This document shows positions 44,015 through 50,280 of a stretch of DNA of 51,734 nucleotides, in pieces (the first letter of the stretch is position 1; each line of letters starts with the position of its first letter). This DNA is from Acinetobacter sp. (lineage in GTDB: Bacteria > Pseudomonadota > Gammaproteobacteria > Pseudomonadales > Moraxellaceae). The notes beneath the pieces were generated by a model. That model saw nothing but the letters and a program-made list of their open reading frames with translations, made no database searches and was not told where the DNA came from. The stretch covers positions 1 to 51,734 of the forward strand of contig JAITLL010000052.1 of assembly GCA_031277915.1 (NCBI GenBank), read 5' to 3'. The position numbers were made by a program, and so were the translations under genes.

Positions 44015-44028
44015 CATTTATTCAACAT

Positions 44029-44601
44029 TTAATTACTATTATAAAGTGCAAAAACAGACAACAGATAATAATCAAAAAGGCTTTCTCTATCATCCACATG
44101 ATTTGGGCTTAATAACTGTGTCATGGCACCATCTATAATAAATAAAAACATATGTGCCTCTTGATAATTCACAGTTTTCTTATGTTCAGATAAAATTTGA
44201 TATATGGTGTTGATAAACCATGTTCTATATTTTTTCACAACATCATAAGCAACTGGATAAGTTGACTTAATCTCCACAATTGCCTTAAAAATCAAATGAT
44301 ATGAGCTTTGCATATCGACATGTAAATAGAAAATTTTCTTAAGTTTATCAACCAAACTTAAATTTTCTACCCGATCTAAAATAAACTCAATTTTATCAAT
44401 TAACTGGTTTTTATGTACCACCAAACATATTTCAACCAATTTTTCTTTAGATTCAAAATATTGATACAACGTCATTTTAGATACTTTTGATTCTTTAACA
44501 ATAGTATCGACACCAACATTGTTAAAACCGTACCGACCAAACAACAAGCTAGAAGTTTCAAGCAGTTGTTTTGCTTTACCACCCATTTTCAAATTAAGCA
44601 T
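44029..44601 (-). CDS. TetR-family transcriptional regulator
   Basis: A 190-residue regulator with a TetR helix-turn-helix at about residues 10-55 (LLETSSLLFGRYGFNNVGVDTIVKESKVSKMTLYQYFESKEKLVE). The C-terminal part has no recognised ligand group. Its gene is more AT-rich than the neighbours to the left and it borders the accessory segment. There is no divergent protein gene within 1.3 kb, so its target may be itself or the RNA-like element upstream of it. Confidence 0.88.
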   Translation of the reverse strand: MLNLKMGGKAKQLLETSSLLFGRYGFNNVGVDTIVKESKVSKMTLYQYFESKEKLVEICLVVHKNQLIDKIEFILDRVENLSLVDKLKKIFYLHVDMQSSYHLIFKAIVEIKSTYPVAYDVVKKYRTWFINTIYQILSEHKKTVNYQEAHMFLFIIDGAMTQLLSPNHVDDRESLFDYYLLSVFALYNSN

Positions 44602-44897
44602 AAATTATTATTCCAATCATTTTTTATTTTAAATAGTCGAGATAAATTTCTACACAGCATAGCGGGAGAATAAAAATAAAGGCGTAAGAAACCACCTTCA
44701 AGATTATATTGCCAAATATATCTCGAATATAAATACTAAATATAATTTTTAAATGTAATAATCTAAAAAATTAAAACCTACAAAAGATTAAAATTTTAAA
44801 GAAAATAATAATTTATAATGAAATATAGGGATTTTGGTCAAGGCAACCAATAAATGAAATTTTAAGAACATGACAACCTCCAATACTCACAATCGGA
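44602..44897. other. AT-rich gap upstream of the TetR gene
   Basis: About 300 bases with very low GC and many A/T runs. I see no gene. It must contain the TetR promoter and perhaps the promoter of the structured element that begins near 44898. Confidence 0.5.
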
Positions 44898-45140
44898 TTC
44901 TGCCAAGATAATAAATTATGGTGGCAGAACGGAAGAAGGTTGACGGACTAGTATTTACTCAAACTAGCACACCCGAAGGTGTCCCTCTCCCGTCCTACCG
45001 CTACGGGAGGGAACGAGTGGTTCACCACACAAAACAATTCCTCAGATGAAGAAAGCTCTGATGCGGGAGTAAATAAGCAGACCGTCAAGACTGCCTGGCA
45101 ATGTGGCCAGGATTGCAAGAATAATGATTGGCCAAACGGC
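44898..45140 (+). ncRNA. Candidate structured RNA, possibly of the phage C4/CI antisense type
   Basis: A stretch of clearly higher GC than its AT-rich flanks, full of pairings. TTCTGCCA/TGGCAGAA frames its start (44898-44929). A long-range helix TTGACGG (44940-44946) with CCGTCAA (45082-45088) closes a multiloop holding hairpins CTAGT/ACTAG (44948-44967), a ten-pair bulged stem TCCC-TC-TCCCGT/ACGGGAGGGA (44982-45012), GTGG-TTCA-CCAC (45017-45028) and TCAGA/TCTGA (45042-45061). CCTGGC/GCCAGG (45094-45111) follows. This architecture recalls phage immunity antisense RNAs; strand and class are inferred. Short frames through it change register and have no convincing start. Confidence 0.5.
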
Positions 45141-45202
45141 TGTCAATAAACTACATTTTTTAATTGTAAAAAAAATTAGACCGTAAATAAATACTTAACA
45201 AT

Positions 45203-45872
45203 CTATATGTTGGGTATTTGATCATAAACAAAATCATCTTTGCTTTGAAAAAATATATCAAAGCTTTGACTCATTAACCAATCTTGCTGACTTTTCTTTT
45301 TAAAAATTAGTGCAAGTCGTTCCTTATAATAATTAACCCATTCATCATTATTTTTAAAAAATATCTCTATCTTTTAAGCCATCATATAATTCCTTTAAAT
45401 TCATGGTTATAGTTTCAATCTTTGGATTAAACATCCAAACGGTTATATCCATTTTTTCGGCCGCCGTTACTAGATATTTATCATTAGGATCAAAAGATTC
45501 AACCCTATAAAGTTGAGCACCATTCTCTGTGTATGTCGAGTACATAATTTTAGTATTAGCAACTTGATAATAATCTGTACCTATTTTAAACTCTCGTAAT
45601 TTCCTAGAAATATCTAAACAATCAGCAAAATAATGATGTGGTAATTTTTTAAAATTATTAAATAATCTAACTGCATTAATAATCACATTATACTCCCCCG
45701 TACCTGTAACAATGCCATTTTCCCATGAATGAATTTTAGAAACATTCTCTTTGGGATAAGTTAAAGTACCATCTTCTAAAATAGTGGCTATTTTGTTATC
45801 CGATGCAACGATAATGCTATCATTTAATTGAATTGCTACAATAAAGGTCATAAATAGAGTGGAATAAAACAC
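45203..45872 (-). pseudogene. Unrecognised gene frameshifted in a homopolymer run
   Basis: The first 172 codons run from 45872 to a stop at 45354; the +1 frame then continues without a break for 49 codons (KNNDEWVNYY onward) to a stop at 45203. The change of frame falls at six A (45356-45361, six T on the coding strand), where removing one base gives a 222-residue protein reading DRDIFKNNDEW across the join. The start may be the eighth codon (MTFIVAIQLNDSIIVASDNK). That strand pattern recalls proteasome-like Ntn hydrolases, but this is only a guess. It could equally be a sequencing error. Confidence 0.65.
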
Positions 45873-45946
45873 TTTAAAATAATATTATTATAAGATTATA
45901 GGTGAAATTAAAAACTTTTTAATAAAATAATAGGTAAATCTAAATC

Positions 45947-46147
45947 ATGGCTGGTGGTTCACAGATCATTATCAATAAAAGCGGTATTACTGTTATTACG
46001 CCGTCTAAATTCGAGGTTAAAGCAGGTCAGCATCTTTTTAAGCCCGGCGCTCAAGTACAAATGCCTCAGATTGCACTTCCCCAACCTATTTGTATTGAAT
46101 GCCTTTTGAAAGCGGCCAAAGAAGGTGCAGGGATTGTAAGAAGATGA
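45947..46147 (+). CDS. VgrG C-terminal (DUF2345-end) stub
   Basis: A 66-residue protein that matches the last part of VgrG spike proteins: the strings SQIIINKSGITVITPSKFEVKAGQHLF are typical of the DUF2345 C-terminus of Acinetobacter VgrG. The gp27/gp5 body is absent, and stop codons lie just upstream in frame, so this is not a window artefact. Its stop overlaps the adaptor start (ATGA). It may be a recombination remnant or a detached cargo-docking tip made as a separate protein. No clear ribosome site precedes the ATG. Confidence 0.75.
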   Translation: MAGGSQIIINKSGITVITPSKFEVKAGQHLFKPGAQVQMPQIALPQPICIECLLKAAKEGAGIVRR

Positions 46148-46641
46148 GTTTTAAGAATCAAAATTTAGAAAGTTTTATTGCTAATCATCATAAAGATGGA
46201 CAATTATTTTTGCTTGTTGATGGCGCTCAGATCGACCACGGCCATATATCAAATTTAGAAGACCTGTACGGCGATTGCTTCTACTTATTTCAAGGTACAT
46301 ATGAAGAAGAAGCCTACCAATATGGACCCATATTGTTCGATTTAAGTCAGTTAAACCTAAAGCAAGTTGAAAGCCATATCAGGCTCATGAAATCCAAAGA
46401 CTCTATGATTTTGATTAAGAGTAAATTAGACATTAAACAATTGAAAAATAAGCTTCTAGAAAAGCTCTATATTGAACTCGATGACGGCGGCATAGGTATT
46501 CTTCGATATTACGATCCACGTGTGTTAGATCGCCTCTCTCTCATCTTTACCAATGAACAAAAAATGCAATTGCTTGAAGGCTTTGAGTCCATTTCTTTTA
46601 TGCTCAACGAGTTAAGCTATGAGTTGAAATATAATGATTAA
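46144..46641 (+). CDS. DUF4123 type VI secretion adaptor (Tap/TEC family)
   Basis: A 165-residue chaperone that loads an effector onto a VgrG spike. DUF4123 landmarks are present: LVDGAQ (24-29), FYLFQGTYEEEAYQYGPILFDL (46-67), a repeated SK-type strand and the C-terminal RYYDPRVLDRL (121-131). The start at 46144 overlaps the VgrG-stub stop and agrees with the family N-terminus; the in-frame TTG upstream would run into the stub gene. The gene overlaps the next one by eight bases. The toxin downstream is its probable cargo. Confidence 0.88.
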   Translation: MSFKNQNLESFIANHHKDGQLFLLVDGAQIDHGHISNLEDLYGDCFYLFQGTYEEEAYQYGPILFDLSQLNLKQVESHIRLMKSKDSMILIKSKLDIKQLKNKLLEKLYIELDDGGIGILRYYDPRVLDRLSLIFTNEQKMQLLEGFESISFMLNELSYELKYND

Positions 46642-46975
46642 GTTAGATAAAAATCAAATAGATAGTTTGGAAAAAGTACAAGATAGACAAGTTTTATGTG
46701 AAAAAATCTATCAATACTTAGTTGAGAAAAAAGATTCTTTCAAGGCGTATCCAGTTAATTACGATGAGTTAAAGCCAGAAATATATAAGAGTTTTGACTT
46801 ATTAGTATCTCTTTTACTGACTGACAATGCGGTCATTTGTCAGCTGATAGTTTGGAATACCATCATGAGAAAAGGTGTTCTAAATGATCCTGGTATTCAA
46901 AGCTTTGTTAAAGGCTCAAATGCCCGTGGAAAGGACTTACTTGCAGCTTTTGAATATTACGAACTGAGAGATTGA
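46634..46975 (+). CDS. 113-residue unknown protein in the T6SS module, possible co-adaptor
   Basis: I do not recognise the family. The protein is soluble, acidic and largely helical, without signal or membrane segment. Its ATG overlaps the adaptor gene and the stop is four bases before the toxin gene, so it is translated within the adaptor-toxin unit. In Pseudomonas aeruginosa, TseT, a Tox-REase-5 effector, is delivered with a TecT adaptor and a co-adaptor; this gene occupies the equivalent slot. That role is inferred from order only. Confidence 0.7.
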   Translation: MIKLDKNQIDSLEKVQDRQVLCEKIYQYLVEKKDSFKAYPVNYDELKPEIYKSFDLLVSLLLTDNAVICQLIVWNTIMRKGVLNDPGIQSFVKGSNARGKDLLAAFEYYELRD

Positions 46976-46979
46976 TGAA

Positions 46980-47618
46980 ATGTGGATGTTTGTTTTACGT
47001 GGTGCAGCTGCAGTTGGTGGTCGAGCTGCTGCCCCAGCTGCAGGCGAAGTTGTCGCTGCTCAAGGCGGCAGAGTTATTGCGACCGAAGCTGCGAAAGGTA
47101 TGGCGACCATTGTTCTAGCTAAGGAAGTCAGTAAAGATATAGCAAAGCAACAACGATGTAATAAGTGCGAACCTTACCAATTAGGCAATAAGCACGAAAT
47201 TGAACGCTCGATGGGTAATGAAATTAATACACAATATCAGTTCAAAATCGCTAACTTATCTAGCTATCCTTTAACCTTTAGAACATCTGAGCCCTTTTTA
47301 AAACCCGGAAATAAGAAGGAAACAACAAAGGTCCAAGAATGGTCCGTAGGAGGGGTATCATTTGATGGGTTATGGCCAATGGAATGCATTCTAGTTGAAG
47401 CAAAAGGAAGGTATGCGCAGTTTTTGAATCCTAAAATGAAAGAGTTCATTACAGATAATGTTTTTAAACATATGGTTAAAGAAGCCAAGAGCCAAAGAAC
47501 CGTTGTACTAACGCTCAAGGGCGCTAAGTTACAATGGTACTTTTATAAGAAAGAAACCAAAGCATATTTCGATGACCTTCTTTTTAATGCGATACATACA
47601 ATTTTTATGCCTTTGTAA
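46980..47618 (+). CDS. T6SS nuclease effector with a Tox-REase-5-like domain
   Basis: A 212-residue toxin. Residues 1-50 are Ala/Gly-rich and hydrophobic; the C-terminal half matches the restriction-endonuclease-fold toxin 5 group: QYQFKIANL, EWSVGGVSFDGLWP, ILVEAKGRYAQFLNP. The PD-(D/E)XK core is D129, E140 and K142 (with E75 as a possible further ligand), so a metal-dependent DNase is expected. It follows a DUF4123 adaptor and precedes an immunity gene by 14 bases, the standard T6SS cargo order. The start codon at 46980 is not backed by a strong ribosome site, but coupling to the gene before is likely. Confidence 0.82.
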   Translation: MWMFVLRGAAAVGGRAAAPAAGEVVAAQGGRVIATEAAKGMATIVLAKEVSKDIAKQQRCNKCEPYQLGNKHEIERSMGNEINTQYQFKIANLSSYPLTFRTSEPFLKPGNKKETTKVQEWSVGGVSFDGLWPMECILVEAKGRYAQFLNPKMKEFITDNVFKHMVKEAKSQRTVVLTLKGAKLQWYFYKKETKAYFDDLLFNAIHTIFMPL

Positions 47619-47632
47619 AACAGGATAGTAAA

Positions 47633-48322
47633 ATGAAAAAGTTTTTCGTTAGTACGCGTCTACCCAAAGCGCTAGGTAATTCATCTTCTGACATTGAAGA
47701 CCAATTAAAAATACTAGACAAAATAGTTAGAGAAATTTCTGTTATTGATCCAATTTTTGCTCATTGGTATGTAAATAATTATGATGAGACTGCTCCTAAA
47801 GCTCCTTTAGTTTATACAATCCCATCAGATAAAGGCTATAAATATCTCTTTGATTTAAAAAGTGGTGATGAATTTGAAAGCTTTTCATTATGGAATGGCA
47901 TCGAAGAAAATATTGATTATACCAGTATAGATTTGAGTAACATTGGCCTACTCGTGAAATTTCAGAAGGTCCTATCTGCCGATCAAATTGTTCAAATTTT
48001 TGAAGTGATTTTAAAGTATTTAAAAGTTGAATATCTCTATATAAATTATAAATTTTTCAAAGATATTAATGTGTTTGAACATCGTTTACCTACGACCTCA
48101 ATTTGCTATGTCTCTTTAAATGTTGCCGCGGACTATTTACCACATCTCTATAAAAAAGTTGATGTAGATAACCAATACAACAAAGGTACTATTCTGGTGT
48201 TTGATGAAAACTGGGCATCTGAAGCTAATGAGTTAAAGAAAAAAGTGCAAGAAAATTCTATTGCTCTAATTGAACTTGGTGCAATTCCTGAAGCTACTAT
48301 TCCTGATTCTTTTTTTGAATAA
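47633..48322 (+). CDS. Immunity protein for the nuclease effector (Imm52-like)
   Basis: A 229-residue cytoplasmic protein beginning MKKFFVSTRLPKALG, with AGGAT before the ATG. It lies directly after the toxin gene and has an adjacent homologue, both expected of an immunity gene. The pattern (ISVIDPIFAHWY, SLWNG, PTTSICYVSL, LVFDENWASEANELKKKVQ) is compatible with the Imm52 group that often accompanies Tox-REase-5, but I assign this mainly by position. It should neutralise the nuclease by binding it. Confidence 0.75.
   Translation: MKKFFVSTRLPKALGNSSSDIEDQLKILDKIVREISVIDPIFAHWYVNNYDETAPKAPLVYTIPSDKGYKYLFDLKSGDEFESFSLWNGIEENIDYTSIDLSNIGLLVKFQKVLSADQIVQIFEVILKYLKVEYLYINYKFFKDINVFEHRLPTTSICYVSLNVAADYLPHLYKKVDVDNQYNKGTILVFDENWASEANELKKKVQENSIALIELGAIPEATIPDSFFE
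48176..48265 (+). repeat. 90-bp near-identical repeat, copy 1 (immunity gene 3' end)
   Basis: Encodes the NKGTILVFDENWASEA region. It differs from the copy at 48991-49080 at one base, while the surrounding parts of the two immunity genes are much more diverged. This suggests recent gene conversion or recombination at this spot. Confidence 0.9.
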
Positions 48323-48373
48323 ACAATAGATATATGGGGTACAAAGCCTGCCCCTGTTTTTATAGAAAAATAA

Positions 48374-48439
48374 CAACAAAGCATTCCCTACATGAGATGG
48401 ACGAGTTTCACTTATCTCAACAATTTTATGCCTTTATAA
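48374..48439 (+). pseudogene. Relic of a toxin-gene 3' end
   Basis: Twenty-one codons open in frame and ending NNFMPL-stop, just like the intact toxin's IFMPL-stop. The following AT-rich leader with AGGAT and the ATG spacing (15 versus 14 bases) also matches the junction between the intact toxin and its immunity gene. This implies that a second toxin was lost, leaving only its tail in front of an immunity copy. Confidence 0.5.
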
Positions 48440-48454
48440 AAATAGGATTTGAAA

Positions 48455-49140
48455 ATGAGTGAATTTTTTCTCAGTACACGCCTACCAAAAGAGTTAGGAA
48501 AGTCTTCAGCTGACATTGAAGCGCAATTAAAAACACTAGAAAATATAGTAAATGAAATTTCTGTTATTGATCCAATTTTTGCGAATTGGTATGTCAATAA
48601 CCCTGTCGGGTCTAAGCCACCTTATGATTATCCATTTCCATCAGAAAAAGCTAAAAACTACCTTTTTAATCTTAGAAAAAAAATCAAGATGAATTATTTC
48701 CATTGTGGAATGGTTCTTTAGATGACGAATTGTTCGTTAGTTTTTATCTAGATAGACTAGGTTCAGTTATGACTTTTGAAAAAGTCTTAACAACTGAGCA
48801 GATAATACAACTATTTAAAGTTGTATTGAATCATTTTAAATATGATTATCTATATCTTAATTCCCTCTTTTTCGGAATGATAAATATTTTTCCCCATAGA
48901 CTTCCTACTACATCGATCTGCTATGTCCCTGTCAGCATAACCGCAGACTATTTACCTCATCTTTATAAAAAGGTCGAAATAGATAACGAATACAACAAAG
49001 GTACTATTCTGGTGTTTGATGAAAACTGGGCATCTGAAGCTGATGAGTTAAAGAAAAAAGTGCAAGAAAATTCTATTGCTTTAATAGAGCTTGGTGCAAT
49101 TCCTGAAACTGAAACGCCTGAAGATTTCTATGATGTGTAA
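48455..49140 (+). pseudogene. Second immunity-protein copy, frameshifted at a poly-A run
   Basis: Homologue of the neighbouring immunity protein, starting MSEFFLSTRLPKELG and ending EDFYDV. The frame is broken at eight A (48676-48683). With nine A the join reads NLRKKNQDELFPLWNG, which aligns without gaps to DLKSGDEFESFSLWNG of the intact copy and gives 228 residues against 229. As given, translation stops at 48721 after 89 residues, and the rest lies in another frame. It could be an inactive orphan, a phase-variable gene, or a sequencing error in a homopolymer. Confidence 0.85.
48991..49080 (+). repeat. 90-bp near-identical repeat, copy 2
   Basis: Partner of 48176-48265, one base different, in the second immunity copy. 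Confidence 0.9.
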
Positions 49141-49155
49141 TCCATAAATAGATTG

Positions 49156-49183
49156 TTAGCCCTCTTTTAGAGGGCTTTTTTTA
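49156..49183 (+). terminator. Terminator of the T6SS cargo operon
   Basis: AGCCCTCT/AGAGGGCT stem with a two-to-four base loop and a seven-base T run, directly after the second immunity copy. Confidence 0.9.
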
Positions 49184-49378
49184 TAAGTATTAACATCTTC
49201 TCAAAGTGAAAATTGATTGATAGACATGTACCACAAAATGCATAATGATCATTCTTTTGAAGGCTTAGCAGAGTGCCTCTACTGACAATAAATGTCACAT
49301 TATGTCAATGTAGAGTGTTATTTTCTAATCTATATTTATTCAAAATTTATAATTTTAATACTTAAAATAGAGTAAGAC

Positions 49379-49789
49379 ATGAGCAATAACAATTATATTG
49401 ATGAGCTTTTAAAGCTCTTAGCGATGTTTGCTTTTATCTGCGTTTCATTATTAGCATTTAAATGTCGAACCATCTTCGCACTAGATATAGAAACATCATA
49501 TGAGGTCTCTTTAAAAATTATTATCTACGGTGCTACGGCAGCTATTCTTGGTTTTTTAACACGCGATCATATTGAGTTTACAACACAATTTTTAATTGCT
49601 GTACCATTTGCATACTTTTGGCTAGAACCAGTTCTTGACTACAAAGCCATTCAAACCATCCCTGATGTTCCGTTTTATTTGTCAGGTCATGGTCAAAGTT
49701 TAGGCTTACTCATCATCATTATATTCTGCTTCGCCCTCTGGGTATTTAAAGAAACAAGTTCAAACTCACCTGAGTCTCAAAATGTCTAA
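49379..49789 (+). CDS. Small membrane protein of unknown family, paralogue 1
   Basis: A 136-residue protein with four predicted membrane helices (about 13-28, 43-60, 68-85, 107-125). Its key motif, PVLDYKAIQTIPDVPFYLSGHGQSLGLL, sits between helices three and four and is also found in the next gene. I do not recognise the family. It is separated from the toxin module by a terminator and a 195-base AT-rich gap, so it has its own promoter. A role as an extra immunity protein or unrelated cargo cannot be told apart. Confidence 0.7.
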   Translation: MSNNNYIDELLKLLAMFAFICVSLLAFKCRTIFALDIETSYEVSLKIIIYGATAAILGFLTRDHIEFTTQFLIAVPFAYFWLEPVLDYKAIQTIPDVPFYLSGHGQSLGLLIIIIFCFALWVFKETSSNSPESQNV

Positions 49790-49896: not shown

Positions 49897-50280
49897 ATGT
49901 TTAATGTATCAAACCCAGCAAATGCCGTTGTAGTGAGCATTATTACAATCATTGCGACCGTTAGCCTTCTTATATGGAAGTTTAATTTTTATCTTGGCAT
50001 AGATATATATACCAGTGGAGAAGTACTTTTCAAAACACTGCTATATGCGGTCGTAACAGGGCTATTTAGTTACTATTTCCGCTATACCATTAAAATTAGT
50101 AATACGGTGATCTTTTCATTACCTCTTTTTTTCTTTTGTATCAGACCCATTCTGAACTACAAAATGACGCATAGTATGGGCAATATTCCGCTATATGCAA
50201 CTCATCATGGTCAGGGTGGAATATTACTCAGTTTAACTGTACTGGCTTGTATGCTGTGGGCCTATACTGCTCACTCATAG
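49897..50280 (+). CDS. Small membrane protein of unknown family, paralogue 2
   Basis: A 127-residue protein with the same four-helix plan. It shares DIYTSGEVLFKTLLY with DIETSYEVSLKIIIY in the neighbour, and PILNYKMTHSMGNIPLYATHHGQG with PVLDYKAIQTIPDVPFYLSGHGQ. The two are clear tandem duplicates that have diverged widely. Its ATG at 49897 is in a very AT-rich stretch with no strong ribosome site. Function unknown. Confidence 0.7.
   Translation: MFNVSNPANAVVVSIITIIATVSLLIWKFNFYLGIDIYTSGEVLFKTLLYAVVTGLFSYYFRYTIKISNTVIFSLPLFFFCIRPILNYKMTHSMGNIPLYATHHGQGGILLSLTVLACMLWAYTAHS

What the first reader, a model, noticed from the sequence alone, without database searches (positions are those of the whole stretch)
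45947..49140. Orphan type VI secretion cargo module built on a VgrG tip stub
Gene order VgrG C-terminal stub, DUF4123 adaptor, unknown 113-residue protein, Tox-REase-5-like nuclease, immunity, second immunity, all on one strand with overlaps. No full VgrG or T6SS core gene is present. Either the stub is a recombination scar from capture of this cargo behind a different vgrG, or a separately made VgrG tip that docks the cargo.
Basis: partly seen in the sequence, partly recalled or inferred. Interest (0 to 1): 0.75.

Follow-up and report, generated by a model that had tools for sequence, protein, structure and literature searches.

The report
Stand-alone VgrG tip with toxin cargo
A tiny gene that looks like a broken-off end of a bacterial injection spike appears instead to be a real, recurring part: a separately made spike tip that goes with many different toxin genes and nearly always sits back to back with a gene for a proteasome-like enzyme whose role is unknown.

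Summary
The module is real. The 66-aa "stub" belongs to a family of stand-alone genes in Acinetobacter and kin ("mini-tips"): the last ~17-36 residues of the VgrG DUF2345 prism, with their own ATG, joined to cargo-specific tails. The window copy is under strong purifying selection (dS 0.84, dN 0.04 against a plasmid copy), so a plain scar is unlikely. The same adaptor-113aa-toxin-immunity cargo sits behind a mini-tip in three places and behind a full vgrG in one. One mini-tip is fused to a predicted effector.

It lies near 35 of 43 short hits and 0 of 107 long-frame VgrG hits listed. Thr/Ser1, Asp17 and Lys33 are kept in 50 of 50 copies compared. The enzyme varies with the mini-tip head more than with the cargo tail. 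The pair also occurs in Alkanindiges, Moraxella (beside TssF/TssG) and Vogesella.

Inferred: the mini-tip loads cargo on the resident VgrG spike. The hydrolase's role is unknown. Stand-alone DUF2345 docking proteins are known, so this is a new variant with a new partner. In the window the hydrolase gene and second immunity copy are frame-broken.

The parts
45354..45872 (-). Divergent gene ('div'), proteasome-beta/Anbu-like Ntn hydrolase; likely start (MTFIVA...) at 45851. Frame-broken in this copy: residues 1-165 read at 45357-45851, the C-terminal part matches in another frame at 45209-45361. Intact copies exist in other genomes.
   Evidence: frames; fold, on a relative; T/S1, D17, K33 in 50 of 50 relatives compared
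45947..46147 (+). Mini-tip ('stub', 66 aa): head = last ~36 positions of the VgrG DUF2345 prism; tail ALPQPICIECLLKAAKEGAGIVRR, 82% identical over 22 residues to the end of a full-length VgrG of G112
46144..46641 (+). DUF4123 adaptor/chaperone (165 aa); ATGA overlap with the mini-tip stop
   Evidence: PF13503 E 5e-16; NCBIfam Tla1 E 4e-20, below its cut-off
46634..46975 (+). 113-aa protein of unknown family, kept between adaptor and toxin in the four loci with this cargo; possible co-chaperone (inference)
46980..47618 (+). Tox-REase-5 nuclease-type toxin (212 aa)
   Evidence: PF15648 E 9e-17
47633..48322 (+). Probable immunity protein (229 aa), by position; 59%, 54% and 47% identical copies follow the toxin in L003, L041 and L042
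48455..48721 (+). Second immunity copy, N-terminal piece (frame-broken gene)
48703..49140 (+). Second immunity copy, C-terminal piece in another frame

Best explanation
The stub is a functional stand-alone VgrG tip ('mini-tip'). Shown here by sequence: it has its own conserved start, is under purifying selection, consists of the terminal DUF2345 segment plus a cargo-specific tail, and is in most cases encoded head-to-head with a proteasome-type Ntn hydrolase. Inferred: the mini-tip is translated together with the DUF4123 adaptor (4-bp overlap), its tail binds the adaptor(/113-aa)/Tox-REase-5 complex as the C-terminal extension of a full VgrG would, and its head attaches to the spike of the resident T6SS, by stacking on the end of the host VgrG prism, under PAAR or by sharing the VgrG-PAAR interface. 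The nuclease toxin is thus fired by a T6SS encoded elsewhere in the genome, and kin are protected by the immunity gene. The Ntn hydrolase probably acts on or with the common element (mini-tip or VgrG tip) rather than on any one cargo; which step (trimming, quality control, assembly) is not known.
For: Family: of 43 head matches in the fetched loci, 37 begin with ATG at the same residue; of the other six, L042 is a full VgrG, L077, L078 and L079 are interrupted VgrGs (VgrG homology continues upstream), L043 starts further upstream and L072 has a disrupted head. In 13 of 13 VgrG frames that codon is not ATG. An AGG lies within 22 nt before the start in 32 of 37. Selection: window vs plasmid copy dS 0.84, dN 0.04; median dN/dS 0.26 over the 341 pairs of 39 heads that passed a filter (at least 5 synonymous differences, dS 0.1-1.5). 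Pairing: hydrolase gene within 3 kb of 35 of 43 short hits and within 5 kb of 0 of 107 long-frame hits. Fusion: L135 is a 460-aa protein beginning with the head (PF10106 match at residues 2-35), with an HExxH-like stretch seen by eye, no VgrG upstream and a divergent hydrolase gene. Tails are homologous to VgrG tails (62-67% for L053/L055/L057 vs the interrupted VgrG L078; 64-65% for L047/L054 vs the host's C20 VgrG). Local match: the Vogesella mini-tip is 59% identical to its own genome's VgrG and 25% to an Acinetobacter VgrG; M. lacunata 53% to its own VgrGs and 37% to the window mini-tip. Structure: a modelled mini-tip has the Tle1-bound VgrG spike as top PDB match (6sjl_A, probability 1.00, E 0.004, TM 0.45). 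T6SS: TssC in 34 of 41 genomes with a hydrolase match vs 69 of 135 without (Fisher p 3e-4, not corrected for relatedness). M. lacunata: pair directly after TssF and TssG genes. Precedent: a stand-alone DUF2345 protein binds VgrG and effector and bridges them (PMC10673891, sections 8 and 9 read).
Against: No binding, expression or secretion data. The mini-tip lacks most of the DUF2345 prism; eight loci (L126, L128, L131-L134, L136, L142) keep only ~17 head residues, so self-trimerisation is unproven, and the head is modelled at low confidence (pLDDT 55-66); no PDB match of that model reaches E 0.001. The four host VgrGs already carry a near-complete DUF2345, so how a second tip fits is unclear. 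The Alkanindiges mini-tip does not follow the local-match pattern (62% to an Acinetobacter VgrG, 53-55% to its own genus's VgrGs). The window copy has a broken hydrolase gene, a broken second immunity gene and a longer AGGT-to-ATG spacing than L003 and L041, so this copy may be decaying. G151 carries a sister module, and G030 and G091 carry mini-tips, without TssC. Three short hits lack a nearby hydrolase without excuse (G017 twice, G047), and four hydrolase genes (L121, L127, L129, L130) lack a nearby mini-tip.
Confidence: 0.72

Rival explanations
1. Recombination scar or remnant: the stub is left over from capture of the cargo behind another vgrG and does nothing.
For: The same cargo exists behind a full vgrG in G112; the window island has two other broken genes.
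Against: dN/dS about 0.05 against the plasmid copy; same start in 37 of 43 matches; mini-tip heads share residues that the full VgrGs seen lack (IIINK.GIT.ITP); hydrolase pairing absent from the 107 long-frame hits; effector fusion.
Confidence: 0.08
2. Recombination anchor: the head is kept mainly as homology through which orphan cargo can be moved behind a full vgrG; the protein itself is not needed.
For: Tails are shared between mini-tips and full VgrGs; same cargo behind both forms.
Against: An anchor needs neither an own start, nor ATGA coupling to the adaptor, nor selection at the protein level, nor a dedicated enzyme; window and plasmid mini-tips differ by 23 synonymous changes over 66 codons, poor for homologous exchange.
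Confidence: 0.1
3. The mini-tip is a dominant-negative or regulatory decoy of the T6SS spike, like the inhibitory VgrGi of A. baumannii.
For: VgrGi shows that an altered VgrG C terminus can block A. baumannii T6SS and that the C terminus is essential there (PMC6960284, passages seen).
Against: The window unit carries toxin, adaptor and immunity genes; mini-tip tails match VgrG cargo tails, and one mini-tip is fused to a predicted effector.
Confidence: 0.06
4. The head-to-head Ntn hydrolase is itself a second T6SS effector or a general immunity factor, and the mini-tip association is only shared mobility.
For: Some T6SS effectors are hydrolases (general knowledge); a TetR gene and a C4 RNA also travel with this island; hydrolase-tail covariation, though weaker, is also above chance (partial r 0.19, permutation p 0.0025).
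Against: Kept with many unlike downstream genes; its distances follow the head (r 0.65) much more than the tail (r 0.30); relatives in phage tail modules.
Confidence: 0.12

Closest known systems
Stand-alone DUF2345 docking protein (E. coli PAR AKO63_2954; Wang et al. 2023, PMC10673891)
   Same: DUF2345-derived protein made from its own gene beside a toxin; there it bridges VgrG and toxin
   Different: There it lies downstream of a vgrG gene whose product corresponds to the VgrG domain of VgrG2b, the DUF2345 domain being encoded separately; here only the last ~36 of 151 positions remain, the locus has no vgrG, the host VgrGs carry their own DUF2345, and an Ntn hydrolase is paired with it
VgrG C-terminal prism + TTR domain bound to Tle1 (PDB 6sjl)
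   Same: A modelled mini-tip with tail has this chain as its best PDB match; tails homologous to VgrG tails
   Different: Made as a separate small protein, not as the end of VgrG; the match is modest (E 0.004, TM 0.45)
P. aeruginosa TseT module (PAAR4, TecT, co-TecT, TseT, TsiT; gene roles recalled)
   Same: DUF4123 protein, a second small protein, Tox-REase-5 toxin, immunity
   Different: First gene is a VgrG mini-tip, not a PAAR protein; homology of the 113-aa protein to co-TecT not tested
Acinetobacter PAAR-2b proteins with partial DUF2345 (Repizo et al. 2019, PMC6838775, passages seen)
   Same: Short DUF2345 pieces outside VgrG, suggested there to have an adapter role
   Different: Fused to PAAR; no PAAR match in ours, which start with the DUF2345 end
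Anbu / HslV / proteasome beta
   Different: No match to a Pfam proteasome model; mostly in mini-tip loci, distant relatives in phage tail modules; partner ATPase genes not looked for systematically

Membership tests
Stand-alone DUF2345 T6SS docking proteins | DUF2345 domain over the curated cut-off | tested here: not met
   23.8 bits vs 30.7; only profile 118-148 of 151
Stand-alone DUF2345 T6SS docking proteins | Encoded as its own gene next to toxin and immunity | tested here: met
Stand-alone DUF2345 T6SS docking proteins | Lies in a vgrG locus, downstream of vgrG | tested here: not met
   no full DUF2345/VgrG match on the window's contig; the head profile found no VgrG-length frame in the other mini-tip loci
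Stand-alone DUF2345 T6SS docking proteins | Binds VgrG and effector | not testable with these tools
   needs pull-down
VgrG (TssI) | gp27/gp5 spike domains | tested here: not met
   only the DUF2345 end
DUF4123 (PF13503) | Score over cut-off | tested here: met
   59.5 vs 25.8 bits
Tox-REase-5 (PF15648) | Score over cut-off | tested here: met
   61.8 vs 25 bits
Tox-REase-5 (PF15648) | Nuclease activity | not testable with these tools
   needs an assay
TseT-type module | PAAR carrier gene in the module | tested here: not met
   no PAAR match among the ten window ORFs scanned; a crude motif scan of other mini-tip loci was also empty
TseT-type module | 113-aa protein homologous to co-TecT | not tested
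   no co-TecT sequence was compared
Proteasome-type Ntn hydrolases | Fold | tested here: met
Proteasome-type Ntn hydrolases | N-terminal Thr/Ser after Met, Asp17, Lys33 | tested here: met
   T 47 + S 3 of 50; D 50 of 50; K 50 of 50. The equation of these columns with Thr1, Asp17 and Lys33 rests on the alignment and on recalled proteasome numbering
Proteasome-type Ntn hydrolases | Sequence match to a Pfam proteasome model | tested here: not met
   none for L082 or L098 at E 0.01 (L082 has only a sub-cut-off Hemocyanin_N match); PDB profile search gave proteasome beta only at E 0.05
Proteasome-type Ntn hydrolases | Catalytic activity and ring assembly | not testable with these tools
   needs biochemistry

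The most novel reading that the evidence does not exclude
Moraxellaceae (and at least one betaproteobacterium) use a detachable-tip T6SS: cargo is mounted on free mini-VgrG tips that add to the resident spike, and a dedicated proteasome-like Ntn hydrolase, related to proteins of phage tail modules, processes or quality-controls the tip. It would be a two-gene T6SS accessory system that travels on small plasmids and islands and can add cargo to any strain with a compatible spike.
Probability: 0.4. Interest if true: 0.88.

Novelty: new variant of a known kind. Interest (0 to 1): 0.72.

Why it matters
Effector surveys that start from vgrG genes (as PMC6833914 and PMC10673891 describe in the passages seen) would not see these loci, since they have no vgrG; here 35 such units with the enzyme turned up among the listed hits in a 176-genome Acinetobacter set. 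They suggest that a T6SS spike can be extended or retargeted with parts encoded on plasmids or islands, with cargo tails exchangeable between full VgrGs and mini-tips. The recurring proteasome-like partner opens a testable question: does a peptidase act on the T6SS spike?

Tried and rejected
Scar hypothesis: tested by dN/dS and conservation, disfavoured. PAAR carrier near mini-tips: a crude motif scan of ORFs in 37 loci (L003, L041-L076) found none; the motif is recalled. 113-aa protein: no Pfam hit, only chance-level PDB matches; 4 of 176 genomes match, one (G150) only a weak stop-ridden piece. Toxin: no PDB relative by sequence. 'Phage' hits to the mini-tip and hydrolase in 'Acinetobacter phage MD-2021a' look like bacterial contigs (others under that name, up to 379 kb, carry Vgr genes) and were not used. 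Class-wide scans, which drew few Moraxellaceae, found the mini-tip in 2 of 369 genomes (own; the other a long-frame VgrG) and the hydrolase in 1 of 369 (own), so the wider spread rests on one genome-contig scan (24 loci, three of them with short partial matches). The Vibrio plasmid hit (22% identity) has no mini-tip among its annotated neighbours. Literature searches; in the listings and passages seen no paper named a mini-tip/Ntn-hydrolase pair; subscription papers and preprints are not held. The one paper holding Anbu, proteasome and type VI secretion (PMC6851490) was checked by passages and treats them in unrelated places.

Limits of counts: the match list was cut at 150 rows, so 35 of 43 and 0 of 107 refer to those rows, split by frame length (<=260 aa, plus the 520-aa fusion, against longer); rows were copied by hand into the scripts. 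The eight short exceptions: G165 and G091 (contig edges), G170, G040 and G006 (interrupted VgrGs), G017 twice and G047 (true exceptions). The 49 of 54 includes loci chosen because the hydrolase was there; its gaps of 16-25 bp for eight short-head loci are an artefact (67-76 bp when measured from their ATG). Conversely 47 of 53 fetched Acinetobacter loci with a near-complete hydrolase hold a mini-tip; L119 and L147 lie at contig edges, L121, L127, L129 and L130 lack one. The seven genomes with a hydrolase match but no TssC include three with fragments only (G013, G112, G152). TssC in G021 is a fragment. One search used 50 pairs, dropping those without a usable hydrolase or head anchor, and includes the truncated L117 and the disrupted L072. 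One search stopped with an error in its last part, redone.
Full report
What is there. The window is one whole contig (C67) of an Acinetobacter genome of 3.48 Mb (genus from the plasmid and genome matches). On the + strand from 45947 lie a 66-aa ORF matching only the last part of DUF2345, a DUF4123 adaptor, a 113-aa protein without a family, a Tox-REase-5 toxin and an immunity-like protein. A second immunity copy follows but is split between two frames. The genome elsewhere carries TssC and four full-length VgrGs, so the module is an outlying cargo locus of a T6SS strain, not a lone remnant.

The stub is a family. A search of 176 Acinetobacter genomes with the 66 residues matched 126 genomes. 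Of the 150 rows listed, 107 are long frames and 43 short. In the fetched loci 37 of 43 matches start with ATG at the same residue (MAGGSQIIINK.GIT.ITP.KFE.KAGQH.F..G), 32 of the 37 with an AGG close before it. The 13 VgrG frames have no ATG there and differ in sequence. Behind the head come tails of about 20 to 190 residues of many kinds. Related tails occur at the ends of VgrGs, including one of the host's own (C20). The window tail is 82% identical over 22 residues to that of a full VgrG in G112, which is followed by the same adaptor, 113-aa, toxin and immunity genes. Own-genome copies: the window, C6 and C50. Plasmids also carry units: A. oleivorans S4 (this cargo), A. indicus pB18-6 and p94-2-p2.

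It is selected as protein. Between the window copy and the A. oleivorans plasmid copy there are 23 synonymous and 6 non-synonymous changes (dS 0.84, dN 0.04). Over 341 pairs of 39 heads that passed a filter on dS the median dN/dS is 0.26; the highest is 0.93. One relative (L135) has the head at the start of a 460-aa protein with an HExxH-like stretch (seen by eye) and a gene right behind it; its only Pfam match is the DUF2345 end. Eight loci (L126, L128, L131-L134, L136, L142) have only a ~17-residue head.

Spread. A scan of the GTDB genome collection with the hydrolase gave 24 loci, all but the Vogesella one in Moraxellaceae. Of the five non-Acinetobacter genomes examined further, four have TssC. 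In Moraxella lacunata the pair sits directly after TssF and TssG genes, there in the same direction. The Vogesella and M. lacunata mini-tips are closest to the VgrG tips of their own genomes (59% vs 25% to an Acinetobacter VgrG; 53% vs 37% to the window mini-tip). The Alkanindiges one is not (62% to an Acinetobacter VgrG, 53-55% to VgrGs of its own genus), and M. boevrei has no DUF2345 VgrG match to compare. Mini-tips may thus have arisen or been re-matched to the local spike more than once. Among Acinetobacter, TssC is in 34 of 41 genomes with a hydrolase match and in 69 of 135 without (p 3e-4, relatedness not corrected). Against this, G151 carries three mini-tips and no TssC.

How it most likely works. 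Shown: conserved stand-alone tip, tail homology with VgrG, recurring enzyme partner, selection. Inferred: the tail binds adaptor and toxin; the head joins the resident spike; the T6SS fires the complex. Two published results make this plausible. A separate DUF2345 protein bridges VgrG and toxin in E. coli PAR (PMC10673891, sections 8 and 9 read). The VgrG C terminus is essential for T6SS in A. baumannii (PMC6960284, passages seen). The role of the hydrolase is open; trimming or quality control of the tip is my guess, at perhaps 40%.

Mobility. Relative G061 has the two flanks of 44016-49194 14 bp apart. A TetR-family gene and a C4 RNA lie beside the module also in G151 and on the A. oleivorans plasmid, so the island may move as a whole.

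Verdict. A new variant of a known kind (stand-alone VgrG-derived cargo docking) with an enzyme partner that I did not find in the papers searched. The window copy itself may be partly decayed.

Noticed in passing
window 44917-45005 (-), repeat about 44898-45126: C4 antisense RNA (RF01695, 61 bits) within a ~230-bp repeat with 8 further matches in the host genome (C62, C4, C41, C40, C79, C77, C76, C26), two of them (C77, C40) with a TetR match about 0.5 kb away; a C4 and a TetR-family gene also lie in the VgrG or mini-tip loci L138, L136, L041 and L003.
   Followed up: partly
window 44029-44601 (-): TetR-family regulator carried inside the island; 92% identical protein beside the sister module in G151 but only 46% on the A. 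oleivorans plasmid.
   Followed up: partly
window 44016-49194: Island absent at the same site in G061, flanks 14 bp apart.
   Followed up: partly
L130 4017-4607 (-), L186 6001-6600 (+): Proteasome-like Ntn-hydrolase relatives inside phage tail modules near tape-measure genes; function unknown.
   Followed up: partly
window 48455-49140: Second immunity gene frame-broken, 62-63% identical to the first, with a nearly identical C-terminal stretch.
   Followed up: partly
window 49379-49786 and 49897-50277: Two small paralogous membrane-like proteins (29% identical) between the island and the isocitrate dehydrogenase-like gene (name recalled).
   Followed up: no
L054 6073-7455: Integrase-like ORF (by eye) just upstream of an unpaired mini-tip in G047, suggesting another mobile island.
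   Followed up: no
L077 8118-12006: A vgrG in G170 whose end is separated from the rest by about 1.3 kb, perhaps an insertion.
   Followed up: no
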